Assembly: GCA_025774805.1 (NCBI GenBank)
Contig: JALGZR010000062.1
Location: 1 to 49,122 of the forward strand
DNA: 49,122 nucleotides
Source of the DNA: a bacterium
Lineage (GTDB): Bacteria > ARS69
Reading direction: 5' to 3'
Shown: piece after piece, positions 1,304 to 34,637 of the stretch
Numbering within the stretch: position 1 is the first letter of the stretch
Layout: the number at the start of each line of letters is the position of its first letter
Position numbers and translations under genes: made by a program
The notes under the pieces: generated by a model
Database searches by the model: none
Told to the model about the DNA's origin: nothing
The model's input: only the letters and a program-made list of their open reading frames with translations

Positions 1304-3934
1304 TTGGCCCTTGCTCCGCCCGCCCGGGATCGTTCGCCAGGCTCGGCGCCCCGCTTCCCGTTCGCCGTCTGCTCCTTCGTCTCCGCCTCCCTGTTGGCCC
1401 TCCAGACCTCTCCGGCGCGAGCCGGCTTCACCGAGGCGAGCGTCGCGTACGGTATCGCGAACGGCGACAGCATGAGCTACGCGGCCGGTTTCATCGATTA
1501 CGACGGCGATGCCGACGCCGACTTTTTCGTGAACGACCACTGGCAAAGTCCACAGTTTCTCTATCGTAACGAAGGGGGTCTCTCGTTCCTCGATCAGTCG
1601 GCGCACTATCTCGCGGGCGAGAACGACCGTCACGACCAGCTCTGGGGTGACCTCGACAACGACGGGGATCCCGATCAGTATATTAGCCACGGCCGCGAGC
1701 AGGACAATGAGCTCTATTGGAACAATGGAAACGGGACCTGGGTCGAAGGGGCTCTGGCGGCGGGAGTCGAGGACTTCGACGGGCGGGGGCGGGAGCTCAC
1801 CTTCGCCGACTTCGACCTTGATGGATTCCTGGACATGTTCCTGGTCAACGCCCTCCGGGTGGGATTCCCTCGCCCGAACGTCCTGTTCCGGAATGACGGA
1901 GACGGGACGTTTTCTCGGATGCCGAACGCCGATCCACTGTATGCGACCCGGCTCCATGCTTCGGGCGCGGATTACGACCAGGACGGCTACGCCGACATCC
2001 TGACCACGAATCCTCAGTATCAGCCGGGGGAGCTCTACCGGAACGATGGCGACCTCACGTTCACGGATGTCACCGCGACCGCGTTCGCGGGGATCGTCGA
2101 TCCTCTTCTGCACGCTCAGGGAATCGCGTGGGGCGATTACGACGATGACGGTGATCTCGACCTCTTCACGTCCTCGGGGAATCGCGGAATGTGGGACCAC
2201 GCCGTCGTCGAGAGCGACTCCCTGCGCTACTACGTCGAGGTGGATTCGACCAAGGCCAAGACCCTGTCGATCTGGACCTCCGCCGACAGCGTCACCCTGA
2301 GCTGCACGACGGCCGACTGGCAGCCGGTGATGTGCTGGTACGGAGCCGCGGGAGATTCCACGACGACGTTTCCGCTCACCGTTCGCCTCGACGACATTCT
2401 CGGGACACCGCCCGATCCCGCCGAGGGGGTCTCGGGCCTGCTCCTCTGGGCGCTTCCCGATTCCGGTGAATACGTGGTCAAGCTCAAGATCGTCGGGGGC
2501 GGAGAAAACGTCCTGAAGGTCGGGGGGGGAATGCGGCCCATCGGATCGACGGTCACCTCGTCGTCGGCGGAGAACTTCGATCCCCCGCCGGCGTACGCCA
2601 CCGCGAACTGGTCGAATCGTCTCTACCGGAACGAGGGAGACGGCACGTTCACCGAAGTGACCTCGGGGGCGTTCGCGATGAACGACTCCACGTTCAACAG
2701 CATGGGGGCCACTTGGGGCGACTACGACAATGACGGGTCTCTCGACCTCTATGTCTCGAACGGGGGTACCATCGTGACCGGGAATGAGCCCAACGTGCTC
2801 TACCGGAACAACGGCGACGGGACGTTCACCGACGTGGCGGCGGCGGAGGGAGTCCAGGGATCGACGCGGGGCATGACGGATGGCGCGGCCTGGGGGGACG
2901 TGGACGGAGACGGGTTTCTCGACCTCTACGTGGATCACGGAGCGGAACACCCCCCGTTCGGGGTCGGCCCCCGCGAGCTCTTCATGAACTCTCCGAACGG
3001 GAACCACTGGCTGAAGCTCGACCTCCGAGGTCTCGGTTCCGACAACGGGAGCGGTATCGGGGCGCGAGTGCGCGTCGTCACGGAGTCGGAAGAGCGGTGG
3101 CGCACCGTTCTGGGCGAGAGCGAGAATTGCTTCTCCGGCGGTACGACCGTTCACTTCGGTCTGGGGACGGACACGATCTGCCAGAGCGTTCGCGTGATCT
3201 GGCCATCCGGTGCGACTGACACGCACTTCTCGGTCGGGGTCGATCAGCATTATGTCGCCGTCAAGGGTAGGCTGCTCCGGCTGAGGCAGAATCCTCACCT
3301 GGAGATCGACCGGGGGCCGATCGCGGTCGAGTTGGCGCCGAACTCCTTGGCCTTCGAGCCCGTGCCGCTCGATAACCAGGGTGGACTGGCCTGCTATTAC
3401 ACCGTGCGGCTCGAGGACTGTTCCGGGGAGCCGGCCTCCTGGATGACGATGAGCGCCGACTCCGGGGGCGTGTGGCCGGGAGGGGACGGGGGCAACAGCC
3501 TCCAGCTGGCGATCAGCTCTACGGGGCTCGGGGTCGGCCTCTACTGTGGGCGCGTAATTTTCGAGTCCAACAGCACCCAGGGCCCCGACACTCTCGACGT
3601 TTCCCTCGAAGTGATCGACAGCGGTCTTGCCGTCGCCGGGCCGGTCGGCCTCCCGCTGCGGTTCGAACTCGGTCCGCCGCGGCCGAACCCGACCTCCCAG
3701 AGCACGGTCCTATCCCTCGCGCTGGCATCCGGGGGAGAGATCCGCGTGAGCGTCTACGACATCCAGGGCCGGACGATCGTGACCCTTCTCGACCGATGGC
3801 TTCCCGCCGGCTTCCACGAGGTCGTCTGGGACGGTCGGAACCCGTTCGGCCGCCGGGTGGCGTCTGGCGTCTACTTCCTCCGCGCGTCCCAGGACGGCAG
3901 TCAGGCCGTGCGTAAGGTTCTGATCCTGAATTGA
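1304..3934 (+). CDS. Secreted FG-GAP/ASPIC-UnbV repeat protein with FlgD-like C-terminus
   Basis: The product is an 876-residue extracellular protein. I chose the TTG at 1304 because GGGAG sits 7 bases upstream and it gives a normal signal peptide (hydrophobic core FAVCSFVSASLLAL, cleavage after SPARA); an in-frame GTG at 1220 would add 28 unlikely residues. The body has many FG-GAP/VCBS repeats with calcium-binding DxDxDG loops (DYDGDADADFF, DYDDDGDLDLF, DVDGDGFLDLY). An ASPIC/UnbV domain follows (NHWLKLDLRGLGSDNGSGIG, then VRVIWPSGATD). A BACON-like stretch and the FlgD-like Ig module (PNPTSQSTVLSL, VVWDGRNPFG, VASGVYFLRA) end the protein. An insert around residues 295-420 interrupts the repeat series. 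FG-GAP proteins of this kind are propeller-like binding proteins; the ligand is not predictable. Confidence 0.85.
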   Translation: MALAPPARDRSPGSAPRFPFAVCSFVSASLLALQTSPARAGFTEASVAYGIANGDSMSYAAGFIDYDGDADADFFVNDHWQSPQFLYRNEGGLSFLDQSAHYLAGENDRHDQLWGDLDNDGDPDQYISHGREQDNELYWNNGNGTWVEGALAAGVEDFDGRGRELTFADFDLDGFLDMFLVNALRVGFPRPNVLFRNDGDGTFSRMPNADPLYATRLHASGADYDQDGYADILTTNPQYQPGELYRNDGDLTFTDVTATAFAGIVDPLLHAQGIAWGDYDDDGDLDLFTSSGNRGMWDHAVVESDSLRYYVEVDSTKAKTLSIWTSADSVTLSCTTADWQPVMCWYGAAGDSTTTFPLTVRLDDILGTPPDPAEGVSGLLLWALPDSGEYVVKLKIVGGGENVLKVGGGMRPIGSTVTSSSAENFDPPPAYATANWSNRLYRNEGDGTFTEVTSGAFAMNDSTFNSMGATWGDYDNDGSLDLYVSNGGTIVTGNEPNVLYRNNGDGTFTDVAAAEGVQGSTRGMTDGAAWGDVDGDGFLDLYVDHGAEHPPFGVGPRELFMNSPNGNHWLKLDLRGLGSDNGSGIGARVRVVTESEERWRTVLGESENCFSGGTTVHFGLGTDTICQSVRVIWPSGATDTHFSVGVDQHYVAVKGRLLRLRQNPHLEIDRGPIAVELAPNSLAFEPVPLDNQGGLACYYTVRLEDCSGEPASWMTMSADSGGVWPGGDGGNSLQLAISSTGLGVGLYCGRVIFESNSTQGPDTLDVSLEVIDSGLAVAGPVGLPLRFELGPPRPNPTSQSTVLSLALASGGEIRVSVYDIQGRTIVTLLDRWLPAGFHEVVWDGRNPFGRRVASGVYFLRASQDGSQAVRKVLILN

Positions 3935-4098
3935 ACGGCGTGGAACTCACCCGCAGTTCATGAACCGTTCCCGGGCCGATCCCGGAGGGACTCCCGTCGA
4001 ACCGTCGACTCACCTGTACGCCGACTGAGGAGGGGACGGTGACGGCGAGGGACGGGGGGAGACCGGCCCGGTGAAAACACAATCTCCGAAGCACAACG

Positions 4099-4129
4099 AA
4101 AAGGGACGGCCCCGGGAGGGGCCGCCCCT
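4099..4129 (-). terminator. Rho-independent terminator of the gene at 4154-5068
   Basis: On the minus strand an 11-bp GC-rich stem (GGGGCGGCCCC paired with GGGGCCGTCCC, one wobble) with a TCCC-type loop is followed at once by TTTT. It lies 25 bases after the stop of the secreted-protein gene. This is the clearest intrinsic terminator in the window. Confidence 0.8.
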
Positions 4130-4153
4130 GTATGCATTCAGGAGTGGACTCGC

Positions 4154-5068
4154 TTAGCGATAGGCTGCCTTGAGATCTCCCCAGGAAACGTTCTCGTTCG
4201 CGACAGGCCCGCAGTAACCCGGCCCGATCAAGCCGTTGTTGTAGTCATCGAGGACCTGCGTAAGCGGGCTCGAGGTCCCGGGATGAATGTCCCCGCTCCC
4301 TACCGGAGGGACGACCTGCGAGCCGATCAGCGTGTGAGAATCATCCAGAACGGTGTCCACGTCGGACGGATCCGCGCCCTGCGCGATGTTCAGCTCGGCC
4401 GCGATCAACTGGTGCGCGATGATGATCAGCCCGTTTCCCCGTGCCGGCTCGGTCAGGATCGAGAGCAGCTCACTCTGGTCGTACGTGAGGGTACCGAGAG
4501 TCAGCGCGCCTACCGGCCAGAGGTCCGGATGGTTCTTCCAGAAGCCCTGACTAAACGTACAGTTCATGCTCATCTCGGTGGTGGCGAGCATGTCCGGGGA
4601 GAACGGACTGGGATCGTTCGTCGCATCTCCGTTCGCGCGAACCCGGAAAATGTACGTGGTGTTCACGTAGAGTTCGCTCGGAGAGTCGGTGTCCACGCCC
4701 GTCTCGTCGAAGAGGTCTCCGATCTCCACCACGGCGGACTCCCACGGATCGAGCGAGAAGTCCTCCAGCGTGCCGTCCCACGTGTTCAGCGTGGGCACTC
4801 CGTTGAAGTCGGCATCCGAGCGGAGAGGATCCACATCGTCCGGCCACTGCGATCCGTTGGCGAGGAAGTCGGAGTAATCCATCCACTGGATCGTGAAGCC
4901 AGCCGGCGCTCCGCTCCCCGCCGCCCCGACGACGACCGCGACCTTCGCCTGACCCTGGATCAGGCTACCGATGCCCGGGGTGTCGTACTGGGCACCGTTC
5001 GCGGCCGGCACGGACGCAAGGAAGAGGAGAGCAAGGGCGGATACGAACAAGCGGTAGTTATTAGCCAT
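4154..5068 (-). CDS. Secreted protein with fibronectin-like domain and GFWKNH motif
   Basis: The start at 5068 (MANNYRLF) is preferred because AGGAGTGGAGAC precedes it; an upstream in-frame ATG at 5092 lacks this. The 304-residue product has a signal peptide (LFVSALALLFLASVPAANG). An Ig/fibronectin-III-like region follows, with YVNTTYIFRVRANGD near residues 135-150. Then comes CTFSQGFWKNHPDLWPV, the C-T-x-G-x-W-K-N-H motif found in many bacterial cell-surface proteins of unknown function. The C-terminal third (SELLSILTEPARGNGLIIIA, LIAAELNIAQGAD) typically follows that motif. It is a single-gene unit with its own terminator. The function is unknown, but extracellular location is well supported. 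Confidence 0.8.
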   Translation of the reverse strand: MANNYRLFVSALALLFLASVPAANGAQYDTPGIGSLIQGQAKVAVVVGAAGSGAPAGFTIQWMDYSDFLANGSQWPDDVDPLRSDADFNGVPTLNTWDGTLEDFSLDPWESAVVEIGDLFDETGVDTDSPSELYVNTTYIFRVRANGDATNDPSPFSPDMLATTEMSMNCTFSQGFWKNHPDLWPVGALTLGTLTYDQSELLSILTEPARGNGLIIIAHQLIAAELNIAQGADPSDVDTVLDDSHTLIGSQVVPPVGSGDIHPGTSSPLTQVLDDYNNGLIGPGYCGPVANENVSWGDLKAAYR

Positions 5069-5308
5069 GTCTCCACTCCTGAAAACGGCCAACCGGAAAC
5101 GGCCCCGAGAGGGCTCTCAACGACATGAATCTATCACGAGTGACCGTCCCGAGGGAAGGGTCATGGGGCGGGCCGCCCCGGAGACCGGTCCTCCGGGCGG
5201 AAGGCGGCGCCCTGCGCCTTTTCCGGAAAATTCCGCAATCTTCGCGGTTACTGACATCCTTGGGCGAGGTCTCGCCGGATGATAGCCCGCCGCGAGCGGA
5301 TCGCTCGG

Positions 5309-6178
5309 TCAAGGGTCCGTCTGGCGCCACGCCGCGCGCCGTCTGACGGAGTGGGCGCCCTTGCGGACGATCGTTCTTCCTTCTTCGGGGAGGGGAGGGG
5401 GGACCGGCTCGCCGATGATCTTCCGAACGGCGTCGATGCGGCCGGGGCAGGCCTCGAAGCAGGTCCCGCAGCGGATGCACTTCTCCTGATCGATGACGTG
5501 AATCCGGTTCTTGCCGCCCGCGATGCCGTCCACCGGGCATCTCTTGCCGCAGATCATGCAGGCCTGGCACTTCTCCGGATCGATGTGATAGGAGACCACT
5601 TCCCGGAAGAGCCCGTCGATCTCTTCCCTCGTATAGAGATCGTCGTAGTCCTCCTCGCGATCGAGGCGGAGCGCCAGCTTGTCCTTCTTGATCAGCTTGA
5701 TGTAGGGAACGAGCTTCGCGACCTCCTCGAGACCGGCGGTCAGATCCCCGTTGCCCTCTTCTGCGCCGTTGCCGAGGGGGCCCAGCTCCCGCAGCTTCTC
5801 GGTGAAGTCGTTCATCACCTCGGCGAACCGGTTGCCCTCCGCGGCGGAGATCCACTCGATCCGGAGCCTTTCGGGGTTCACCCCCCTGTGCTCGAGCAGC
5901 CTCTTGCAGAGATGCATCAGGTTCAGAGCATCGTAGTTCCCTTCCGTCACGTAGTGGCACTCCCCGAGCCAGCAGCCGCCGACGATCACCCCGTCGGCGC
6001 CCTTCCGGAACGCGCGGAGCACGAAGGCCATGTCCACCCGGCCGGTGCACATCAGGCGGATGATCCGGATCTCCGGTGCATAGCTTTGTCTGGTAACTCC
6101 AGACAGGTCCGCAGCGGAGTACGCTCACCAGTTGCAGAGGAAAGCGACGATCCTCGGCGAGTGGCCGAGTCCGGTCAT
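5309..6178 (-). CDS. bamF: BamF/MvhD-like selenoprotein with C-terminal ferredoxin domain
   Basis: This 289-residue electron-transfer subunit would pass electrons between HdrA-like BamE and an external donor. The conventional reading starts only at MCTGRVDMAF (6052), but on the minus strand an ATG at 6178 with a strong GGAGGTGAGG site overlaps the bamE stop (ATGA). From it the reading runs MTGLGHSPRIVAFLCNW, an in-frame TGA at 6127-6125 (residue 18), then AYSAADLSGVTRQSYAPEIR straight into the conserved MCTGRVD. MvhD has Cys at the TGA position (CNWC), so TGA is read as selenocysteine. The MvhD part (GADGVIVGGCWLGECHY) is followed by two [4Fe-4S] motifs (CQACMICGKRCP, CIRCGTCFEACP) near residues 215-255. 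BamF of Geobacter is, from memory, also selenocysteine-containing. It is the last gene of the operon. Confidence 0.9.
6087..6105 (-). promoter_or_regulatory. SECIS-like hairpin in bamF
   Basis: Downstream of the TGA the minus-strand RNA folds as a perfect 7-bp stem, TGTCTGG/CCAGACA, closing a 5-base loop AGTTA. The loop starts 27 bases after the TGA and has G within its first two bases. Both properties match the known rules for bacterial SECIS elements, which lie inside the coding region just 3' of the UGA and bind SelB. The stem is also coding sequence (LSGVTRQ). Confidence 0.7.
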
Positions 6179-9100
6179 GTCCTCACCTCCTCTTTCGCCC
6201 GATTCTCTTCACCGGCGGAGCTCCACGACTCGGAGAGCGCCGCGTCGATCTGGTTGAAGACCTCCTCGTTCGTGAAGTGCCTCAGGACGATGGCGTCGGT
6301 CGGGCACTTGCTGCAGCAGAGGCCGTCCCCCTTGCAGAGGGCGGGATTCACTTCCGCCTTCTGGCCCCACTTCGTCTGGCGCGCGTGGATCGCGCCGTAC
6401 GTGCAGGCCTCGATGCAGGCCCCGCAGCCGATGCAGCGGGATTCCTCGACCTCGCAGACCGACCCGGATGCCGTGACCGTGTCGTGGGACAGGAGCGTGA
6501 CCGCCCGCCCGGCCGCGCCGAGGGCCTGGCTGATGGTCTCCGAGAGGTGCTTCGGATAGTGGTTCGTCCCGCACATGAAGACGCCGTCCGCGCCGAAGTC
6601 GACCGGCCGGAGCTTCACGTGGGCCTCCTGGAAGAACCCGTCCGGATTCACGGGCACCTTGAAGAGACGGGCGACCTCCGGGGTGCCGGCCGAGGGAACC
6701 ACCGCGGCCGAAAGGGCCACGAGGTCGGCGTCGATGGCCAGCCGCTGCCCGAGCACGGCGTCGGGAACGGTGACCTTGAGGACCGGCTTGCCCTCCTCGT
6801 CCTGGGCCGTCTCGACCTCGGGCCTGCCGTCCGGCTCCCACTGGACGAACCGGACACCCCGGTCCGCCGCCTCGAGGTAGTAGTCCTCCTTGAAGCCGTA
6901 CGTCCGCATGTCCCGGTAGAGAATGTAGAGGTCCAGGTCGGGGCTCCGCCTCTTGAGGGTGAGCGCGTTCTTGACGGCCTGACTGCAGCAGACCCGGGCG
7001 CAGTAGTCCCGGCCCTCCTGCCGACATCCCACGCACTGGATCATCACGACGCTTCGTGCCTTTTCGATCCGCTCGTCGCCCCCGTCGATCCGCTCCTCCA
7101 GCTCGAGCTGCGTCCACACCCTGTCGTCCTCGCCGTAGAGGTACTCGACAGGCCGGTGCTCGTCCGCGCCCGTGGCGAGGACGACGGCGCCGTGCTCGAT
7201 GACCTTGGTCTGTCCCTCCGACTCCACCGTGGTGACGAAGTTGCCCACGTACCCGGACGCGTCCGTGATGGTCGCCGCATGGGAGACGTGGATGAGCGGA
7301 TGTCGGTAGACCTGCTGGATCAAATCCCTCACGTAGGCCTGAACGTCCAGCCCTTCCAGCGTGGCTCGGATCCGCCGCGCCATGCCGCCCAGCTCCTTCT
7401 CCTTCTCCACGAGGTGGACGTCGAAGCCCTGATCCGCCAGGCCCAGCGCGCAGTTCATTCCGGCCACGCCCCCGCCGACCACCAGGGCCGTCTTGTTCAC
7501 GGGAAGCTCGAACTCCTGCAGCGGCTCCAGGCCGATCGTCCGGGCCACCGACATGCGGACGATGTCCTTGGCCTTCTGGGTGGCCTCCTCCTTCTGCTTG
7601 GAGTGCACCCAGGAGCAGTGCTCCCGGATGTTGGCCATATCGAAGAAGTACTGGTTGATGCCCCCTTCCCGGAGCGTGTCGCGGAAGAGCGGCTCGTGCG
7701 TGCGCGGTGTGCAGGCGGCGACCACCACGCGGTTGAGTCCCTTCTCCCGGATCGTGTTCGCGATCTGCTCCGCCGCGTCCGTGGAGCAGACGAAAAGACC
7801 CTCCTCCGCGTGGGCCACGTGCTCCAGGCCCTTCGAGTACTCGACCACGGAGGGAACGTCCACCACGCGGCCGATGTTCGCGCCGCAGTGACAGGCGAAG
7901 ACGCCGACCTTGAGCTCCTCTTCGGAGACGTCCCGCTCCTCGGGATACACCCTCTCCTTGTCCAACTGGCCTCGGCGGGACTTCAGCAGGGCCCCGGCGA
8001 GGGCGCTGGCTCCGCTGGCGCTCATCACCGACTCGGGAATGTCCATGGGGCCCTGGAACGCGCCGCTGACGAACACCCCGGGCCGGGTGGTCTCCATGGG
8101 ATTCACCGGGTTGGTCTTGCAGAACCCGTGCGCGTTCAGCTCGATGCCGAACTGCTCGGCGACCCGCTTCACGTTCGCGGGCGGGGCCAACCCGATGCCC
8201 AGGACCACCAGGTCGAACTCCTCCTCCTTCACGCCCTCCCCGTTCGTCGCGTAGCGGATCGTCACGTTCTTCGTTCCCGGAATCTCCCGCCCGATCTCCA
8301 CGTAGCTCCGGATGAACCGGACCCCGGGCATGTTCTCCGCCCGCCGGTAGAACCGTTCGAAGTCCTTGCCGAAGGAGCGGATGTCGTTGTGGAAGACGAC
8401 GGCCTCGGTTTCGGCGTCGTGGTCCTTCGCCAGGATCACCTGTTTCTGGACATACGAGCAGCAGACCGAGGAGCAGTAGCTGTGGCCGCCCTCGAGCACC
8501 TGTCGGGAGCCGACGCAGTGGATCCACGCGATCTTGTGGGGGTGTTTGCGGTCGGAGGGGCGCAGGATGTCGCCCTCGTGCGGTCCGGTCGCACACAGGA
8601 GCCGCTCGAAGTCGAGACTGGTCACGACGTTCTGCAGCGTCCCGTAGCCGTAATCGCCCCGCACCCGGGGATCGAACGCCGCGTAGCCGGGCGAAAGGAC
8701 GATCGCCCCTACCTTGACGACCTGCTTCCGCGCCTTCTGGCGGAGATCGATGGCCTTGTTCTTACAGACGCTCTCGCAGATCGTGCACTTCTCGTCCTCG
8801 AGGAAGCGGCAGCGGTCATCGATGTAGGGAACGAGCGGAACGGCCTGCGAGAAGTAGATGTGGATCGCCTTGTTGTCGGAGAGTTCCTGATTGAACGCGT
8901 CGGGGACGTGGATCGGGCAGTATTCGGAACAGGTGGTGCACCCGGTGCAGACGTCCTCGTTCACGCGCCGGGGCTTGCGAACCAGCGTGACCTCGAAGTC
9001 TCCGGCCTCGCCTTCGACCTTCTCGACCTCCGTGTAGGTGAGGATCTCGATGTTCGGATGCCGGTCGCACTCGATGAACTTCGGCGACTCGATGCACATC

Positions 9101-9279
9101 GAGCAGTCGTTGGTCGGGAACGTCTTGTCGAGCTGGGCCATCTTCCCGCCGATCGTGGGATCCCGCTCGACCAGGTAGACCTTGTAGCCCGACGTCGCCA
9201 GATCGAGGGCGGCCTGAATGCCGCTGATCCCGCCGCCGACGACCATGACGTCTCCGAGCCCGTTCTCGGACGCGCTCAT
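6175..9279 (-). CDS. bamE: BamE: double HdrA-like flavin/iron-sulfur electron-bifurcation-type subunit
   Basis: The product has 1034 residues, about 1.5 times a methanogen HdrA, because the flavoprotein module is present twice. The first FAD-binding site is VVGGGISGIQAALDLA (residues ~12-27). It is followed by ferredoxin-type clusters CTGCTTCSEYCP and CTICESVCKNKA. Next come the HdrA motifs CVGSRQ...YCSSVCCSYVQKQ and CHCGANIGR (Cys here, where some methanogen HdrA has Sec). A second FAD site (VVGGGVAGMNCALGLA) and a second CVGCRQ...YCARVCCSQAVKNA set follow. Two more [4Fe-4S] motifs (CIGCGACIEACTYGA, CKGDGLCCSKCP) end the protein. The start ATG at 9279 overlaps the bamD stop (ATGA) and its own stop overlaps bamF, indicating tight translational coupling. 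In Geobacter, BamE is the flavin subunit proposed to bifurcate electrons; the same role is inferred here. Confidence 0.9.
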   Translation of the reverse strand: MSASENGLGDVMVVGGGISGIQAALDLATSGYKVYLVERDPTIGGKMAQLDKTFPTNDCSMCIESPKFIECDRHPNIEILTYTEVEKVEGEAGDFEVTLVRKPRRVNEDVCTGCTTCSEYCPIHVPDAFNQELSDNKAIHIYFSQAVPLVPYIDDRCRFLEDEKCTICESVCKNKAIDLRQKARKQVVKVGAIVLSPGYAAFDPRVRGDYGYGTLQNVVTSLDFERLLCATGPHEGDILRPSDRKHPHKIAWIHCVGSRQVLEGGHSYCSSVCCSYVQKQVILAKDHDAETEAVVFHNDIRSFGKDFERFYRRAENMPGVRFIRSYVEIGREIPGTKNVTIRYATNGEGVKEEEFDLVVLGIGLAPPANVKRVAEQFGIELNAHGFCKTNPVNPMETTRPGVFVSGAFQGPMDIPESVMSASGASALAGALLKSRRGQLDKERVYPEERDVSEEELKVGVFACHCGANIGRVVDVPSVVEYSKGLEHVAHAEEGLFVCSTDAAEQIANTIREKGLNRVVVAACTPRTHEPLFRDTLREGGINQYFFDMANIREHCSWVHSKQKEEATQKAKDIVRMSVARTIGLEPLQEFELPVNKTALVVGGGVAGMNCALGLADQGFDVHLVEKEKELGGMARRIRATLEGLDVQAYVRDLIQQVYRHPLIHVSHAATITDASGYVGNFVTTVESEGQTKVIEHGAVVLATGADEHRPVEYLYGEDDRVWTQLELEERIDGGDERIEKARSVVMIQCVGCRQEGRDYCARVCCSQAVKNALTLKRRSPDLDLYILYRDMRTYGFKEDYYLEAADRGVRFVQWEPDGRPEVETAQDEEGKPVLKVTVPDAVLGQRLAIDADLVALSAAVVPSAGTPEVARLFKVPVNPDGFFQEAHVKLRPVDFGADGVFMCGTNHYPKHLSETISQALGAAGRAVTLLSHDTVTASGSVCEVEESRCIGCGACIEACTYGAIHARQTKWGQKAEVNPALCKGDGLCCSKCPTDAIVLRHFTNEEVFNQIDAALSESWSSAGEENRAKEEVRT

Positions 9280-10478
9280 GGCCTCTCTCCGCCTTCCCCG
9301 AACGACTCGAGGACGACCTCGGTGAGGTCCCGGATCTCGAGAACGGCGCCCTCGGGCGGACCCCCGTTCCCCGCGAGACCGAGCCGGCTCTCCTCGAAGT
9401 TGCTGATGCAGTAGGGGCAGGAGGTGACCAAGACCTCCGCGCCGACCTCCTGCGCCTGGGCCAGTCGGAGGTCGCCGAATCTCTCCTCCCTGTCCGTGTG
9501 CATCCAGATCCGGCCGCCCCCGCCGCCGCAGCAGAGGCTGTTCTGCCGCGTGTCGGGCAGCTCCACCAGCTCCAGGCCGGACAGCTTTCCCAGCACGTCC
9601 CGGGGCTCGTCGAAGACCCCGTTGTGGCGTCCCAGGTAGCACGGGTCGTGATACGCCACGCGTTTGTCGAATCGCCCGGTGAGCTCGAGCCGTCCCGCCT
9701 CGACGAGCTCCTGCAGATACTGCGCGATGTGCACGACCTCGAGGTTCACCATGAACTCGGAGTACTCGTTCTTGAACGTGTGGTAGCAGTGGGGAGATCC
9801 GACGAGGATCCGCTTCACTCCGTGGTCGATGAAGGCCTTGATGTTCTCCCGGGCCAGGGTCTTGAACTCCTCCTCGTTGCCCGCCTTGCGGATGCTCTCG
9901 CCGCAGCAGCTCTCCCGCGTGCCCAGGATTCCGAAGTCCACCCCGGCCCGCTCGAGGAGCTTGGCGGTGGCGGCCGCCACCTTCATGTTGCGCGGGTCGT
10001 AGCTGTAGTAGCACCCGACGAAGTACAGGATCTCCATGCCCTCGGTGAACGGCTTGACGGACAGGCCGTTCGCCCAGGCGGTCCGCTGGTCCCGCGCCTC
10101 CCCCAGCGGATTGCCTTCACTGACGATGCTGGTGCGGACGGCGCGCAGCGAGCTCGCCGCGCCGGAGAACACGTCGTAGCTCGCCGCGAGCTTGCGGATG
10201 GCGACCGCGACCTCGATCTGATCGACGCCCCGGGGACACTGCGACGGACATTCCCCGCACGTCGTGCACCGCCAGATGTCATCGACTTCGATCTCCGGCA
10301 GACCCAGAGCGGCCTGCCAGACGATTCGGCGCATGCTGAAGTTCGTCACGCGGTTCCAGGGGCAGACGACGTCGCACTTCCCGCACTGATAGCAGTACTT
10401 GAAGACCCCGCCGCCGGCGTCCTGGATCTCCCGGGCGATGTCGGCAAAAGGGGTGACGGTCTCCACGCTTCTCTCCAT
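9276..10478 (-). CDS. bamD: BamD: HdrC/HdrB-like iron-sulfur subunit
   Basis: The product is a 400-residue cytoplasmic electron-transfer protein. N-terminal HdrC-like part: two [4Fe-4S] motifs, CYQCGKCDVVCPW and CTTCGECPSQCPRG (residues ~28-90). The C-terminal HdrB/LldE-like part has two CCG domains, ESCCGESIRKAG and NSLCCGGGGGRIWM, plus DPCYLGRH and SCPYC, as needed for noncubane clusters. The start ATG at 10478 was chosen from the conserved N-terminus. The Shine-Dalgarno sequence is poor (ACGGAG directly abutting the ATG), and this is the only junction of the operon with a gap (23 bases) rather than an overlap. Its end overlaps bamE by 4 bases. The alternative name would be a generic heterodisulfide-reductase-like subunit; gene order favours BamD. 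Confidence 0.87.
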   Translation of the reverse strand: MERSVETVTPFADIAREIQDAGGGVFKYCYQCGKCDVVCPWNRVTNFSMRRIVWQAALGLPEIEVDDIWRCTTCGECPSQCPRGVDQIEVAVAIRKLAASYDVFSGAASSLRAVRTSIVSEGNPLGEARDQRTAWANGLSVKPFTEGMEILYFVGCYYSYDPRNMKVAAATAKLLERAGVDFGILGTRESCCGESIRKAGNEEEFKTLARENIKAFIDHGVKRILVGSPHCYHTFKNEYSEFMVNLEVVHIAQYLQELVEAGRLELTGRFDKRVAYHDPCYLGRHNGVFDEPRDVLGKLSGLELVELPDTRQNSLCCGGGGGRIWMHTDREERFGDLRLAQAQEVGAEVLVTSCPYCISNFEESRLGLAGNGGPPEGAVLEIRDLTEVVLESFGEGGERP

Positions 10479-10501
10479 CTCCGTTGAGTTTCTTGCCCGG
10501 G

Positions 10502-11056
10502 CTACGGCCCCTTCGACATCCGATCGATGGCGTCGCGCACCTTCGACCAGCCGTGCTTGTTGGCCAGGGCCTCGAGCCCCGCGTCCACCTCTTCCACGGT
10601 CTCCTCCTCTTCGACCTCCTCTTCCCGCTGCTCGAAGGTCAGCGCATCGGCCAGGCACCACTGCACGCACATGGGTTCCTCGAGCGACGGATCCGACTCA
10701 CACATGTCGCACTTCAGCGGCAGTCCCGAGTCCGGTTCCTTGAAGACGTCGCGGGAGGGACAGGAGGCCCGGCAGAAGGCACACTCCTCGTATTCCTTTC
10801 CGTCGATCCGGTACTTGTCCCGACCCGCGCACTCGGCCGCCGTGTACTCGCCCGCGTACACGGGGACGTAGATGTCCGAGAGCGGCTCCCGGATCACGCG
10901 GATGCGCGCTCTCGCCGGGTTCGTGCTGCTGTACTGGGGATGGGAGTGGAAGGCGGAGCAGATCACCTCACAGCCCCGGCAGCCGTTGCACTTGTCGACG
11001 TCGATGACGATTCGTTTGATGACTCGCGTTCTCTTCTTCTTCGCGGGGCCGCTCAC
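10502..11056 (-). CDS. bamC: BamC: ferredoxin-like iron-sulfur subunit
   Basis: The product is a 184-residue polyferredoxin that would connect the tungsten subunit to the Hdr-like components. It starts at a GTG (11056) that overlaps the bamB stop as GTGA. Cys motifs in order are CNGCRGCEVIC (residues ~22-32), CAFCRASCPSRD, then CDMCESDPSLEEPMCVQWC, consistent with several [4Fe-4S] clusters of the DMSO-reductase-electron-subunit type. A short acidic patch (EEEVEEEETVEEV) follows, and a basic stretch (KKKRTRVIKR) opens the protein. No signal or membrane segment is seen, so it is cytoplasmic. Position directly after the AOR-type gene is as in Geobacter bamBC. Confidence 0.85.
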   Translation of the reverse strand: MSGPAKKKRTRVIKRIVIDVDKCNGCRGCEVICSAFHSHPQYSSTNPARARIRVIREPLSDIYVPVYAGEYTAAECAGRDKYRIDGKEYEECAFCRASCPSRDVFKEPDSGLPLKCDMCESDPSLEEPMCVQWCLADALTFEQREEEVEEEETVEEVDAGLEALANKHGWSKVRDAIDRMSKGP

Positions 11057-12916
11057 GACTCGCTTCCTTCGCTGGTGGCGGCCTGGCCCACGACCTCTTC
11101 GTCCGCCTTCAGGATGCCGCGCTCCCGGAAGTCCTCGACCACGTATTCCAGACCGAGCTCGTGCAGGGACGTGCGGGTGGGGACCCCCTCGAGATTCCAC
11201 CCCTTGAACTCGTAGTAGGTGTCGAGCAGCTTCTCTTCGAGCTCGGGGAACCTTCTCTTCCAGTGATCCGCCGGGGGCGCCTCGTCGGCGCGCCGCATGC
11301 CCCTTCTGATGTTGTTGGCCCGGACCAGATCCCGGTTCCGTCTGGTGAGATGCGTCAGTGACTCCTCGTCCAGTTCGAGCCCGGCCCCCGCCGAGATCAG
11401 CTCGGGCAGATTGTGGATGTGGAACGGCGGCTTGTACGGGAAGGACGACAGCCCGGCGCACATCCCGGTGCTGTCGTCGATGTAGTGCATCTTCTCCTGC
11501 CAGTTCACGATCTCACAGCTCGCCTCGGCGGAGGGATAGTTCGGGATCGAGTTCTCTCCCCGGAGCTCCCAGTCCTCGAACCACTGCTTGAACCTCTCGT
11601 CCGGGACGTGGGGCCAGTTGCGGGTGAAGTCCTCGCGCTCCTCCCGGGTCGGGAAGGGGGCCTGGGGGAAGTTGCCCTCGATCTGGGTGATGTTGGCTTT
11701 CTCACCGGTGCAGTACATCAGGAAGTACATCTGGTTCAGCATGCCCAGCTTGAGCGGCAGCTGCTCGGTCTTCTTGATGCAGTTGTGTGCGTACTCCTCC
11801 GCGCCCTTGCCGATCCTCTCGGCCGCCCAGTACGTGCCGTCCGCCAGGACGTCGCCGATGCCCTCCCGCCGGACGATCCGGTCGAGCAGCCAGTAGAAGC
11901 GCCCTTCCTTGTCGGACGGCATTCCCGGGACGTCCTCGTCGGTCAGGATGCCGGCCTCGAGGAGCTCGATCGCGAACGCCATGGTCTGGGGAGCGCTGAA
12001 GGCGTCCACGCCGTGCTCCGTGGCCTTCTGCGCGATCCTCAAGCCGAACTCCAGATCGGAGAAGGCCGCCATCGTATACGTGAGCTTGGAGAAGCACTTC
12101 ATCATGTACGAGCACATTCTCGTATCGACGGAGATGGCCGCCCCGCACTTCATCGGGCAGTTGTAGCAGCTCAGGAGCCGGGTCCGCATCGACTCCATCG
12201 TGTTCGTCCACTGCTCGCTGACCTCTTCGGTCCAGAAGCCCTTTCTGCGCACGCGGGCGTTGCCCCAAACGAAGTTCTCCGTGTGCCACTGCTCGTCGTG
12301 GACGACCATCTCCTGCGGGGAGCCGAGGCCGGCCATGATCGGCATGACATTCTTGAGCGGGTTCTCGTTGCGGTGCTTGATGAACGCCAAAGGCGTAGAA
12401 CACCCGATTCTCGCCGGCCAGTCCGATGGAAGAGACCGCGGCGTCCGGCTGCTCCAGCTCCTGACGGATCACCTCGGCGCTCTCGAGCGTCCCCAGACCC
12501 ATGAGGTGCTTCGCGTCCTTGAGCTCCACCTTGTCGTCGTGAATCCAGAGGTAGACCGGTTCGGGAGACTTGCCGCGCAAGATGATCTTGTCGTACCCGG
12601 CTCGCTTCAGCTCGGGACCGAAGAACCCGCCCATCATCGAGAACCCGAAGAGCCGGGTCTGCGGGGAGATGGAGGACACGATGGTGCGATTGCATCCGGG
12701 AGCGGGGGTCCCCACCAGCAGACCGGTGCCGAAGATAAGGAGGTTTTCCGGATCGAAGTGGCCGACCTCCGGGGGAACCCGGTCCCAGAACAGCTTGGCG
12801 TTCGTGCCCAGTCCTCCGAGATGGAGCTCGGTGAGCCGCGGGTCCGTCGCCACCCGTTCGATGTTCCCCCGGGTCAGATCGATCTCCAAATTGAACCCGG
12901 TTTCCGCGTATCTCAT
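11053..12916 (-). pseudogene. bamB: BamB/AOR-family tungsten enzyme, internal deletion plus frameshift
   Basis: This gene should be the catalytic subunit (class II benzoyl-CoA reductase or a close AOR-family relative). The first 174 residues (MRYAETGFNLEIDL ... GLAGENRVFYA) read in one frame from the ATG at 12916. The remaining ~445 residues (FIKHRNENPLKNVMPI onward) read in another frame, switching at about 12390-12396. In homologs GENRV is followed by ~53 residues with the AVMGDKGxKAIAVRG pterin-binding motif; here they are absent, so about 160 bases are missing. The retained part has SPQEMVVHDEQWHTENF, whose E, H and H spacing fits the active-site residues reported for Geobacter BamB (from memory), and CYNCPMKCG for the [4Fe-4S] cluster. 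As given the gene cannot make a working enzyme; an assembly gap is equally possible. The ATG overlaps the tetR stop. Confidence 0.85.
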
Positions 12917-13554
12917 TCTTCTCCCCCGTCGGTTTCGCTGGAGGCGGAAGCGACGTAGCCGTCCAGAAAGAGGGCGGTCTGCTGCGCCGCGAGATCGTCG
13001 AGGCTCACCCGGGTCCGCTCCGGGTCGTACCACTGATAGAACCAGTTGAGCATGCCGAACAGGTTCGCGGTGGCGAGCCACGAACGGAGGGGTGCGCCCC
13101 GCCGGGGTTGGACCTCCTTGACGAGGTCGTGAACGGCCTCGAAGTAGGAGCGGCGGAGTTCGTAAACCTCGTCGTACGCTTCACCTTCGAGGGTCTCGAG
13201 CTCGCGGGCACAGACTTTGAGCTCGTTCATGTTCTCGCCGAAGTGGCGCACGTGATTGCGCACGGCCGCGGCGATCCGCTTCCGCGGATCGACGATCCCC
13301 TCGAGGCTGCTCCTCAGACCCCGGAGCAGCGAGTCGAACGTGTGGAGCTGGATGGAGTGGAGGATCTCTTCCTTGCTCGAGACGTAGTGGTAGATCCCCG
13401 CGAGGCTGGACCCGGCCTCGGCCGCGATGCGCCGCATCGAGGCCTTGTCGTAACCCACCGCACTGAAGACTCGTGCCGCCGCCGCCAGCACGTGGAGCCG
13501 CTTCCTGTCGAAGGTGGGAGGCCGCCGGCGGGTGGTCGCAAGTGCCATCGTCAT
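12913..13554 (-). CDS. TetR-family transcriptional regulator of the bam-type operon
   Basis: The product is a 213-residue repressor. The N-terminal helix-turn-helix is clear (KRLHVLAAAARVFSAVGYDK, ASMRRIAAEAGSSLAGIYHY, residues ~18-62). The C-terminal ligand domain ends with LAAQQTALFLDGYVAS. It is the first gene of the operon: its TGA overlaps the bamB ATG, so regulator and enzyme are co-translated. A palindrome lies between its promoter and start, so autorepression relieved by a ligand, probably an acyl- or aromatic-CoA, is inferred. The start could be the ATG at 13554 or the ATG two codons later at 13548. Confidence 0.88.
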   Translation of the reverse strand: MTMALATTRRRPPTFDRKRLHVLAAAARVFSAVGYDKASMRRIAAEAGSSLAGIYHYVSSKEEILHSIQLHTFDSLLRGLRSSLEGIVDPRKRIAAAVRNHVRHFGENMNELKVCARELETLEGEAYDEVYELRRSYFEAVHDLVKEVQPRRGAPLRSWLATANLFGMLNWFYQWYDPERTRVSLDDLAAQQTALFLDGYVASASSETDGGEE

Positions 13555-13560
13555 CGTCCG

Positions 13561-13578
13561 TTCGAACGTTCGTTCGAA
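13561..13578. promoter_or_regulatory. Palindromic operator, likely TetR site
   Basis: TTCGAAC-GTTC-GTTCGAA is a perfect 7-4-7 inverted repeat lying 6 bases upstream of the tetR ATG and just downstream of the predicted transcription start. The size and position are typical for an autoregulating TetR-family repressor. Binding itself is inferred. Confidence 0.7.
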
Positions 13579-13591
13579 AATGTCGGACCGA

Positions 13592-13620
13592 ACAGTAATG
13601 TATTGCCACCGCCCTGTCAA
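13592..13620 (-). promoter_or_regulatory. Sigma70-type promoter of the tetR-bam operon
   Basis: On the minus strand a consensus TTGACA (13620-13615) is followed after 17 bases by TACTGT (13597-13592), a moderate -10. Transcription would start near 13585 and run through the palindrome at 13561-13578 into tetR. Confidence 0.55.
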
Positions 13621-31376: not shown

Positions 31377-33344
<1,968 letters not shown>

Positions 33345-33356
33345 CGGGGGGACGTC

Positions 33357-34637
33357 ATGAGCAAGAACGGGTCCGTGATGATTCTCGACGGGGGACGCCG
33401 GACGCCCCGGCCGGACATCCTGATCGACAACCGGGAGCCGGGGCTGTTCTCCCGTTTCACCACCACGCAGCTCGGGGGAATGGCCATCCAGGCCACGCTC
33501 GAGAACACCGCCGTCGACAGGGACGCGATCGGGCACGTCGTCATGGGCATGGCGACGCACAGCCACCGCGACTCCATTTACGCGGCCCAGGGCATGGCGT
33601 GGCGCGGCGGTCTCGCCGCCGACGTTCCGGCCCTGACCGTCGCCCGGATCTGTGGGAGCGGGGCGGAGGCCGTGGCGGTCGGCGCGGAGATGATGCTCGC
33701 CGGAATCCGACACGATCAGAGCCGCCCCTTCACCGTCGTCGGCGGCGCGGAGAGCATGCAGTACCCCTTCATCGTCTACAACCTGAGGGGGAAGAAGGTG
33801 GGCACGGCGGTCCAGAAGTACGGGCCGGTGGACGCCAGGGCGCTTCCGCCCGGAACGCACCTACAGGACTCGCTCCTGATGGGCCTCTACGATCCGTCCG
33901 CCAACATGGCGATGGCGAACACGGCCGAGGAGCTGGGCCGCCGCTACAAGATCACGCGCGAGGAGGCCGACCGGTTCGGGTACCGCTCCCACACGAACGC
34001 GAAGAAGGCGCGGGACTCGGGTTGGTTCGACGAGGAGATCGAGCCCGTCATGGTCCAGAGGGACGGTGCCGAGGATCCCGTCGAGGTGAAGCACGACACT
34101 CACATTATGGACGACGTGACGCTCACGAAGATGGCCCGTCTGCCGGCGGCCTTCGAGCCCGGTGGGATCATCACGGCGGGCAACGCGAGCGCGGTGGTGG
34201 ACGGGGCGGCGGCCATGGTGATCGCCAAGGAGTCGGACGTCGAGAAGCACGGCCTCAAGCCCCTCGCCCGAGTCGCGGGAATGGGCGTGGCCGCCTGCGA
34301 TCCGCACATCATGGGTTGGGGTCCGGTTCCGGCCACGAAGAAGGCCCTCGAGAACGCCGGGCTCCGGGCGAGCGACCTCGATCACGTGGAGCTGAACGAA
34401 GCGTTCGCACCCCAGGCCCTGGCCTGCATCCGCGACTTCGGCGAGATGGGCATCGACCCCGAGAAGGTCAATCCCATGGGCAGTGCGATCGCCCTGGGTC
34501 ACCCCCTCGGGGCCACGGGGGCGATCCTGACTCTGACGTGCGCGTACGCGCTGCGCCGGAAGCAGGAGCGCTACGGTCTGGTCACGATGTGCATCGGCGG
34601 CGGACAGGGCGCGGCTCTGATTCTGGAGTCGATGTAG
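33357..34637 (+). CDS. Acetyl-CoA acyltransferase (thiolase)
   Basis: The product is a 426-residue thiolase that cleaves 3-ketoacyl-CoA or condenses acetyl-CoA. The nucleophile is in [14 protein letters not shown] (C99). The C-terminal catalytic motifs are present: [12 protein letters not shown] (His-region variant NEAFA), [15 protein letters not shown] and [13 protein letters not shown] (acid/base Cys). A GGGGGGAC site precedes the ATG, and the gene directly follows the dehydrogenase/hydratase fusion, so the pair covers the last three steps of beta-oxidation. An acyl-CoA dehydrogenase is not in the window. The long insertion around residues 150-175 is typical of FadI/MaoC-linked thiolases. 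Confidence 0.92.

What the first reader, a model, noticed from the sequence alone, without database searches (positions are those of the whole stretch)
5309..13620. TetR-led bamBCDEF-type operon with autoregulatory palindrome
Gene order and motifs match the class II benzoyl-CoA reductase core (BamB-F). The transport-type subunits BamG-I are not adjacent. All but one junction overlap by ATGA or GTGA, and a TetR repressor gene is fused to the operon by overlap with a promoter (TTGACA-17-TACTGT) and the palindrome TTCGAAC-GTTC-GTTCGAA in front. In an FCB-like lineage this suggests anaerobic aromatic or alicyclic acyl-CoA metabolism, or an unstudied AOR-Hdr complex with another substrate.
Basis: partly seen in the sequence, partly recalled or inferred. 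Interest (0 to 1): 0.7.

Follow-up and report, generated by a model that had tools for sequence, protein, structure and literature searches.

The report
Benzoyl-CoA reductase operon, compact TetR-controlled variant
This is a real gene set for breaking open aromatic rings without oxygen, apparently carried between distant bacterial phyla with its own repressor and DNA switch, but its main catalytic gene is interrupted by a small deletion in this genome assembly.

Summary
The operon (minus strand, tetR-bamBCDEF) is a genuine class II benzoyl-CoA reductase locus. BamB matches the solved G. metallireducens BamB at 706 bits (C part), against at most 51 bits for aldehyde oxidoreductases, and keeps Glu251, His255, His260 and the W ligand Cys322. 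The same genome holds bamQ, bamA and bamR as a cluster on another contig, each over its curated cut-off.

(1) bamB lacks 146 nt (residues 176-224) that 79 of 79 relatives keep, so its frame is broken: a real deletion or an assembly error. (2) BamF starts upstream of an in-frame UGA (selenocysteine), followed by a SECIS-like hairpin; tRNA-Sec and SelB are present. (3) BamF carries a C-terminal ferredoxin domain 62% identical to the end of BamH. Among 43 scorable loci this tail occurs only where bamGH is not adjacent (14 of 14), and untailed BamF only where it is (29 of 29).

The promoter-operator is real: TCGAACGNNCGTTCGA occurs exactly six times in 1.19 Mb of related loci, always just upstream of tetR-bamB or bamB. 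The operon seems to have moved between phyla. Known kind, new variant. Effector and substrate are inferred.

The parts
13615..13620 (-). -35 element TTGACA
   Evidence: Exact TTGACA; with 17-nt spacer also upstream of tetR in L016, L019, L020, L021, L023 and upstream of bamB in L071 (read)
13592..13597 (-). -10-like element TACTGT (weak, 3 of 6)
   Evidence: not picked up by the consensus scan
13561..13578 (.). Operator: inverted repeat TTCGAACG-AA-CGTTCGAA (minus-strand reading), core TCGAACGNNCGTTCGA at 13562-13577
   Evidence: Unique exact match in the genome; 0.02 expected in window; core exact in 6 related loci, all upstream of tetR-bamB or bamB
12913..13554 (-). tetR: TetR/AcrR-family repressor, 213 aa
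   Evidence: PF00440 and TetR_C_24 over cut-off; 61-79% identical to tetR upstream of bamB in L016/L019/L020/L021, 42% in L023; fold neighbours PfmR, AibR, FadR
12392..12916 (-). bamB, first part (residues 1-175)
   Evidence: 281.8 bits to 4z3w_A residues 1-175
12391..12391 (-). Deletion junction: 1 nt where relatives have 147 (76 loci) or 150 (3 loci); net 146 nt missing, frame broken
11053..12390 (-). bamB, second part (Gmet residues 227-652 and a few before)
   Evidence: 706.4 bits to 4z3w_A; E251/H255/H260/C322 kept
10502..11056 (-). bamC, electron-transfer Fe-S subunit
   Evidence: 250.9 bits to 4z3w_E BamC
9276..10478 (-). bamD, HdrBC/CCG-type Fe-S protein
   Evidence: CCG and Fer4 domains; bamD orthologues in relatives
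6175..9279 (-). bamE, HdrA-type flavoprotein, 1034 aa
   Evidence: HdrA2 model 934 bits (below its cut-off of 1100); about 61-81% to relatives
5309..6178 (-). bamF, MvhD-type subunit with selenocysteine codon and C-terminal ferredoxin tail, 289 residues
   Evidence: FlpD 170.8 bits; start ATGA-coupled to bamE
6125..6127 (-). In-frame UGA, codon 18 of bamF (selenocysteine, CNWU)
   Evidence: TGA in 37 of 52 related bamF, Cys codon in the other 15
6087..6105 (-). SECIS-like hairpin UGUCUGG-AGUUA-CCAGACA
   Evidence: four-pair stem at this place in 34 of 37 UGA-bearing and 0 of 15 Cys-bearing bamF
5354..5605 (-). BamF ferredoxin tail (two CxxCxxCxxxC motifs), homologous to the C-terminus of BamH
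   Evidence: 62% identity over 84 residues to BamH 556-639 of L071

Best explanation
The locus is a horizontally acquired, TetR-controlled operon for a class II (tungsten) benzoyl-CoA reductase of a compact type. SHOWN by sequence: BamB and BamC are orthologues of the crystallised G. metallireducens pair; BamD, BamE and BamF are the HdrBC-, HdrA- and MvhD-like electron-transfer subunits; BamF has a UGA codon in the CxxC position; BamF has a C-terminal ferredoxin domain homologous to the end of BamH; bamGHI are not in the operon; bamQ-bamA-bamR are elsewhere in the genome; a conserved promoter-operator lies in front of tetR. INFERRED mechanism: TetR binds TCGAACG-NN-CGTTCGA at the start of the promoter's transcript and shuts off tetR-bamBCDEF; an aryl-CoA thioester (most likely benzoyl-CoA or a close product) releases it. 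Low-potential electrons enter at the BamF ferredoxin tail (in place of BamGHI), pass the cluster of the Sec/Cys site of BamF to the bifurcating flavin of BamE, and the low-potential branch goes through BamD and BamC to the tungsten site of BamB, which reduces benzoyl-CoA to the 1,5-dienoyl-CoA; BamR, BamQ and BamA then hydrate, oxidise and open the ring. In this assembly bamB is interrupted, so the enzyme works in this strain only if the deletion is an assembly error or is not fixed.
For: BamB 706.4 bits (C part) and 281.8 bits (N part) to 4z3w against at most 50.8 and 114.8 bits to any other chain; 69% identical to G. metallireducens BamB. E251, H260 and C322 kept in the window and in 77 of 77 relatives with those columns; these residues are described for the BCR site in PMC12096430 (passages). 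BamC 250.9 bits against 35.3. BamA, BamQ, BamR over curated cut-offs in one cluster C270:25889-28980; the same searches pass the cut-off in 0 of 14 control genomes. C261 and C270 share base composition and tetranucleotide signature (cosine 0.97; 0.96-0.97 to the other four own contigs tested; at most 0.80 to nine foreign loci). Sec machinery: SelB over cut-off, tRNA-Sec with anticodon tca. Operator. PaaR, a TetR repressor with phenylacetyl-CoA as effector, has the homology-derived site CNAACGNNCGTTNG (PMC6651687, passages and a reference title), which the present site fits at every specified base. The TetR model's nearest solved folds include AibR with isovaleryl-CoA, FadR with stearoyl-CoA and FasR with C20-CoA. 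Tail/GHI exclusion.
Against: bamB is broken as assembled and no second bamB is in the genome (one match each). No ligase over the benzoate-CoA ligase cut-off: best 230 of 375 bits. The operator is absent from in front of bamQ (no match within 3 mismatches near it), so the lower pathway is not under the same site. BamB of this clade lies apart from the clade of the characterised enzyme, so the substrate could differ. TetR is not a close homologue of any characterised aromatic-CoA repressor: about 30% identity or less to every listed chain of known structure, and c-di-AMP-binding DarR is also among its fold neighbours.
Confidence: 0.78

Rival explanations
1. A dying operon: the 146-nt deletion in bamB is real, BamB is truncated (175 native residues, then 229 out-of-frame ones, to the frame's stop at 11702), and the operon is a recent relic in this lineage.
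For: 79 of 79 relatives with both parts keep the segment, 147 nt in 76 and 150 in 3; it holds the conserved SASR-G-GAVMGDK stretch. No long direct repeat is seen at the junction when compared with relatives, so an assembler would need reads that span it. Four other species genomes of the same family have no bamB at all.
Against: bamB shows the strongest purifying selection of the operon against L071 (dN/dS 0.09 and 0.14; bamC-F 0.21-0.39), so any loss is recent. All other genes of the operon and bamQAR are intact. The genome is a 284-contig draft, 96% complete, 5% contamination.
Confidence: 0.4
2. Assembly or gap-closing error: the organism has an intact bamB.
For: Same selection argument; L020, a relative from a draft genome, also shows a bamE split in two frames at 14468/14474, as expected of draft errors.
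Against: No Ns, no flanking repeat, and no fragment of the missing piece came up in the genome-wide AFOR_N search, though a 49-residue piece alone might be missed.
Confidence: 0.5
3. The operon encodes a class II-type reductase for another aryl- or alicyclic-CoA (for example a substituted benzoyl-CoA), not benzoyl-CoA itself.
For: Window BamB sits in its own clade (SH-aLRT 100, 8 rows) outside the clade of G. metallireducens BamB; BamB paralogues of uncertain role are known in G. metallireducens and D. multivorans (PMC1924859, PMC5109826, passages). No benzoate-CoA ligase over cut-off.
Against: Signature residues kept, and the dedicated benzoyl-CoA lower pathway bamQAR is in the genome.
Confidence: 0.2
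4. BamGHI is replaced in trans by the unlinked NuoEF-fusion cluster on C124 rather than by the BamF tail.
For: C124 encodes an 807-aa NuoE-NuoF fusion 53% identical to BamH over 623 residues, with an 834-aa and a GltA-like partner. In NaphS2 bamB-F and bamG-I are separate clusters (PMC2988823, passages).
Against: The C124 partners look like an NADPH-linked (Nfn/GltA-type) enzyme, not BamI; the tail/GHI exclusion across loci needs no such partner.
Confidence: 0.25
5. Misbinned contig: the window is not from the organism that carries bamQAR.
For: 5% contamination; the operon is of foreign kinship.
Against: Tetranucleotide cosine 0.95-0.97 between the window outside the operon and five own contigs, 0.78 or less to nine foreign loci.
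Confidence: 0.05

Closest known systems
Class II benzoyl-CoA reductase BamBCDEFGHI of Geobacter metallireducens (BamBC structure 4z3w)
   Same: BamB-F orthologues, gene order, W-ligand Cys322, Glu251/His255/His260, BamBC pairing; BamF UGA shared with most relatives
   Different: No bamGHI in the operon; BamF carries a BamH-like ferredoxin tail; TetR and operator in front (Geobacter is reported to use BamVW or BgeR); bamB broken in this assembly
tetR-bamBCDEF loci of Planctomycetota (L019, L020) and tetR-bam loci of Myxococcota (L016, L021)
   Same: Same tetR (61-79%), same promoter-operator, BamB 77-81%; L019/L020 also lack GHI and have the tail
   Different: L016 has an untailed Cys-BamF plus bamGH; host phyla differ; bamB intact there
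PaaR / PfmR TetR repressors of Thermus thermophilus
   Same: TetR fold (PfmR 3vpr is the top solved match) and a site that fits the PaaR consensus CNAACGNNCGTTNG
   Different: PaaR controls phenylacetate genes; the TetR is only about 27% identical to PfmR; effector here untested
MbdR of Azoarcus sp. CIB (TetR, 3-methylbenzoyl-CoA)
   Same: TetR repressor of anaerobic aromatic catabolism released by an aryl-CoA
   Different: Operator ATACN10GTAT and another pathway (mbd)

Membership tests
Class II benzoyl-CoA reductase (Bam) | BamB belongs to the BamB branch of the AOR/WOR family | tested here: met
   706/282 bits to 4z3w against at most 51/115 to other AOR-family chains; tree with 78 relatives and Gmet BamB
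Class II benzoyl-CoA reductase (Bam) | Cys322 W ligand and Glu251/His260 substrate-site residues (PMC12096430) | tested here: met
   alignment
Class II benzoyl-CoA reductase (Bam) | BamB is an intact open frame | tested here: not met
   146-nt net deletion and frame break in this assembly; whether in the organism too is open
Class II benzoyl-CoA reductase (Bam) | BamC, D, E, F present and linked | tested here: met
Class II benzoyl-CoA reductase (Bam) | BamGHI present | tested here: not met
   Not in the window; genome has two Complex1_51K matches, one in an rnf cluster (RnfC) and one NuoEF fusion. Shared by other loci of the family, so the feature may not define it
Class II benzoyl-CoA reductase (Bam) | Downstream benzoyl-CoA pathway in the genome | tested here: met
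   bamQ, bamA, bamR over cut-offs
Class II benzoyl-CoA reductase (Bam) | Benzoyl-CoA reductase activity, tungsten content | not testable with these tools
   Needs protein
Selenoprotein (BamF) | In-frame UGA aligned with a conserved Cys, with Sec machinery in the genome | tested here: met
Selenoprotein (BamF) | SECIS hairpin just after the UGA | tested here: inconclusive
   Hairpin conserved in 34 of 37 UGA and 0 of 15 Cys genes, but fold z-score in the window only -0.8; no SelB-binding test
TetR-family repressor with linked operator | TetR_N plus C-terminal domain and a palindrome at its own promoter conserved with it | tested here: met
Aryl-CoA-responsive TetR (PaaR/MbdR kind) | Effector is an acyl- or aryl-CoA | not testable with these tools
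   Several fold neighbours bind acyl-CoA; no binding test

The most novel reading that the evidence does not exclude
There are two interchangeable designs of class II benzoyl-CoA reductase. In the second, seen here, the NAD(H)-linked BamGHI module is absent and the C-terminal ferredoxin domain of BamH has been transplanted onto the selenocysteine subunit BamF, giving a compact BamBCDEF machine fed directly by ferredoxin; the design has been swapped several times and travels between phyla, in part with a dedicated TetR switch.
Probability: 0.4. Interest if true: 0.75.

Novelty: new variant of a known kind. Interest (0 to 1): 0.56.

Why it matters
How class II benzoyl-CoA reductase drives a -622 mV reduction without ATP is an open question (PMC9304861 and PMC11971306, passages seen). 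A natural variant that lacks BamGHI and carries the BamH ferredoxin domain on BamF would separate the two proposed bifurcation modules and make the question testable with fewer subunits. The conserved tetR-operator unit is a candidate TetR switch for a class II reductase (MbdR is the TetR precedent for anaerobic aromatics) and a possible aryl-CoA biosensor. It also puts a benzoyl-CoA pathway in a small phylum-level lineage (5 genomes held) where none of the other four has bamB.

Tried and rejected
Aldehyde oxidoreductase or unknown AOR-Hdr complex: rejected. My recollection that 3vpr is PaaR was wrong: it is PfmR. One-base frameshift in bamB was my first reading; the alignments showed a 146-nt deletion. 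Operator shared with bamQAR: not found. First bamGHI count was spoiled because BamH hits fell on the BamF tail; that error revealed the homology, and the count was redone without such hits. In that count 52 loci have bamF and 43 were used. Dropped: L042, L050, L062 (frame breaks), L085 (cut off), L045, L063 (little room, untailed), L047, L051, L081 (tailed, no bamG/H in the 619 to 2,329 nt held). Loci with little room were kept if bamG/H was seen, a bias; by my own reading of the table, with at least 2.5 kb held downstream, it is 13 of 13 tailed without and 23 of 23 untailed with adjacent bamG/H. Two tailed loci (L049, L074) have bamGH 8.9 and 7.8 kb away. On the BamB tree only 5 independent pairs sit on supported branches (sign test 0.0625, cannot reach 0.05), all 5 in the same direction. 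The SECIS fold of single sequences is not exceptional (z -0.7 to -1.2). A fixed expression for the active-site motif gave only 40 of 78, because His255 and neighbours vary; columns were then read from the alignment. Rfam found nothing in the window. Papers: I saw passages of PMC6651687, PMC4424350, PMC5109826, PMC1924859, PMC7324539, PMC13119186, PMC11971306, PMC12096430, PMC12016498, PMC13101534, PMC9304861, PMC2988823, and search listings otherwise. That TetR control of bam genes or the BamF tail/GHI exclusion is not described rests only on searches in this open-access library; work on W/Se-containing class II reductases is recalled, not read.
Full report
WHAT IS THERE. The finding lies on the minus strand of a 49,122-base contig (C261) of a draft genome of 5.1 Mb in 284 contigs, 96% complete, 5% contamination. 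Reading from the promoter: tetR 13554-12913, bamB 12916-11053, bamC 11056-10502, bamD 10478-9276, bamE 9279-6175, bamF 6178-5309.

BAMB IS A BAMB. The C part scores 706.4 bits against the solved BamB (4z3w) and at most 50.8 against any other chain; the N part 281.8 against at most 114.8. Identity to G. metallireducens BamB is 69%. Glu251, His255, His260 and Cys322 are kept in the window; over 78 aligned relatives E251, H260 and C322 are kept in all 77 with those columns, His255 in 49. A review names Cys322 as a W ligand found only in BamB and YdhV, and Glu251, His255, Glu257 and His260 as the zinc/proton site (PMC12096430, passages). BamC scores 250.9 bits to the solved BamC, next best 35.3.

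BUT BAMB IS BROKEN HERE. Codon 175 ends at 12392 and the next conserved residues begin in another frame at 12390. Of 80 related loci, 79 have both parts; the stretch between is 147 nt in 76 and 150 in 3. The window has 1 nt. The lost piece is as conserved as the rest of the protein (top-residue mean 0.84 against 0.83) and begins with a well-conserved SASR-G-GAVMGDK stretch. Against the nearest relative, dN/dS of the two bamB parts is 0.09 and 0.14, the lowest of the operon, so if the deletion is real it is recent. I cannot decide between a true deletion and an assembly error. No other bamB was found in the genome.

THE PATHWAY IS IN THE GENOME. bamA (TIGR03200, 574 bits, cut-off 464), bamQ (TIGR03201, 461, cut-off 339) and bamR (TIGR03189, 302, cut-off 292.5) lie side by side on contig C270; none of 14 control genomes passes these cut-offs. 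Composition and tetranucleotide pattern of the window agree with five other own contigs and not with nine foreign loci. A benzoate-CoA ligase over its cut-off was not found. One AMP-ligase candidate sits at the end of C267 next to what looks like a branched-chain-type ABC transporter (labels from sequence, recalled).

BAMF IS A SELENOPROTEIN WITH A BORROWED TAIL. bamF starts at 6178; codon 18 is TGA, in the place of the second Cys of CNWC in MvhD. Among 52 related bamF genes the codon is TGA in 37, TGC in 10, TGT in 5. A four-pair hairpin stands at a fixed distance after it in 34 of 37 UGA genes and in 0 of 15 Cys genes. SelB and a tRNA-Sec with anticodon tca are in the genome. A UGA-containing Bam subunit is already on record: a D. 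multivorans genome paper lists a UGA-containing gene that it calls BamE (PMC5109826, passage), and Sec in class II reductases is known in outline (recalled). New to me is the tail: about the last 84 residues before BamF's end are 62% identical to the end of BamH of L071, linker included. Scoring 43 of 52 loci, the tail (two CxxCxxCxxxC motifs) occurs in 14, none with bamG/H within 1 kb, and is missing in 29, all with bamG/H adjacent (Fisher 1.3e-11). The trait changes at least 9 times on the BamB tree; 5 independent pairs on supported branches all agree. The genome of the window has only two Complex1_51K genes, an RnfC and a NuoE-NuoF fusion of another cluster, so BamGHI seems absent from it altogether. 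PMC9304861 (passage) proposes that BamGHI bifurcates NADH and ferredoxin to feed the HdrA module; the tailed form would skip that step.

THE SWITCH. The core operator TCGAACGNNCGTTCGA occurs without mismatch six times in 1,192,340 bases of the 80 related loci: upstream of tetR-bamB in L016, L019, L020, L021 and L023, and 119 nt upstream of bamB in L071, which has no tetR there. L017 and L018, in the same BamB clade, have neither tetR nor site there. In the window and in all six the site follows TTGACA, a 17-nt spacer and a -10-like hexamer (overlapping it in L021). The exact 18-bp form is unique in the genome. TetR is 61-79% identical between the window and four of these loci and 42% to L023. 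The site fits the PaaR consensus CNAACGNNCGTTNG (PMC6651687, passage). A model of TetR (mean pLDDT 82.5) has as nearest solved folds PfmR and AibR with isovaleryl-CoA, with FadR, FasR and KstR2 further down; DarR and PfiT are also among them. MbdR was described as the first TetR controlling anaerobic aromatic catabolism, with an aryl-CoA inducer (PMC4424350, passages); Geobacter uses BamVW or BgeR. So repression with release by an aryl-CoA is the best guess; it is untested.

KINSHIP AND TRANSFER. In the BamB tree the window groups with L071 (SH-aLRT 99) inside a clade of eight (100) from Planctomycetota, Myxococcota and an unclassified bacterium. A housekeeping protein (IMP dehydrogenase by its sequence, label recalled) of the window's genome is 78% identical in its own family but only 59-63% in nine of these hosts, whereas BamB is 75-88% and TetR up to 79%. 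One marker is thin evidence, but with foreign flanks (DNA similarity of the tetR-bearing loci begins at the operator and, for L019 and L020, ends in bamF) it points to transfer of the unit between phyla. The order and the phylum of the window are one and the same set of 5 held genomes; the other four have no bamB.

VERDICT. Reader right about the nature of the operon, its junctions and its switch; wrong that it is whole. Known kind of system in a new variant: TetR-switched, BamGHI-less, with a ferredoxin-tailed selenoprotein BamF.

Noticed in passing
L071:9210-9329: The tetR promoter-operator is kept in front of bamB although tetR itself is not at that place; the repressor may act in trans or have been lost.
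   Followed up: partly
window 5309-13554 against L071, L019, L020: Mosaic kinship inside the operon: BamB is closest to L071 (88%), while BamE, BamF and TetR are closest to Planctomycetota L019/L020; possible recombination within the operon.
   Followed up: no
L020:14468-14474: bamE of this Planctomycetota draft genome is split into two frames, another broken gene in a clade member.
   Followed up: no
L016:16154 onwards: BamF of L016 has Cys instead of Sec, and bamGH follow, although its tetR and BamB belong to the window's clade, whose other scored BamF are UGA-type; all 13 scored Cys-type BamF are untailed.
   Followed up: partly
L104 (own genome C124:26000-42000), 3487-9736 minus strand: NuoE-NuoF fusion (53% to BamH) with an 834-aa NuoG/FAD-NAD-binding fusion and a GltA-like protein, resembling a bifurcating Nfn-type enzyme.
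   Followed up: partly
L105 (own genome C267:14000-30000): rnf gene cluster beside a 1655-aa protein that looks like a pyruvate:ferredoxin oxidoreductase (labels from sequence, recalled): signs of ferredoxin-based anaerobic energy metabolism.
   Followed up: no
window 31377-34637: A fatty-acid-oxidation-type pair (3-hydroxyacyl-CoA dehydrogenase/enoyl-CoA hydratase and thiolase), unlinked to the bam operon, a candidate for the later steps.
   Followed up: no
window 1394-3934, 41848-45390, 45462-48359: Three large FG-GAP repeat proteins (two with UnbV/ASPIC, one with TPR) in one contig.
   Followed up: no
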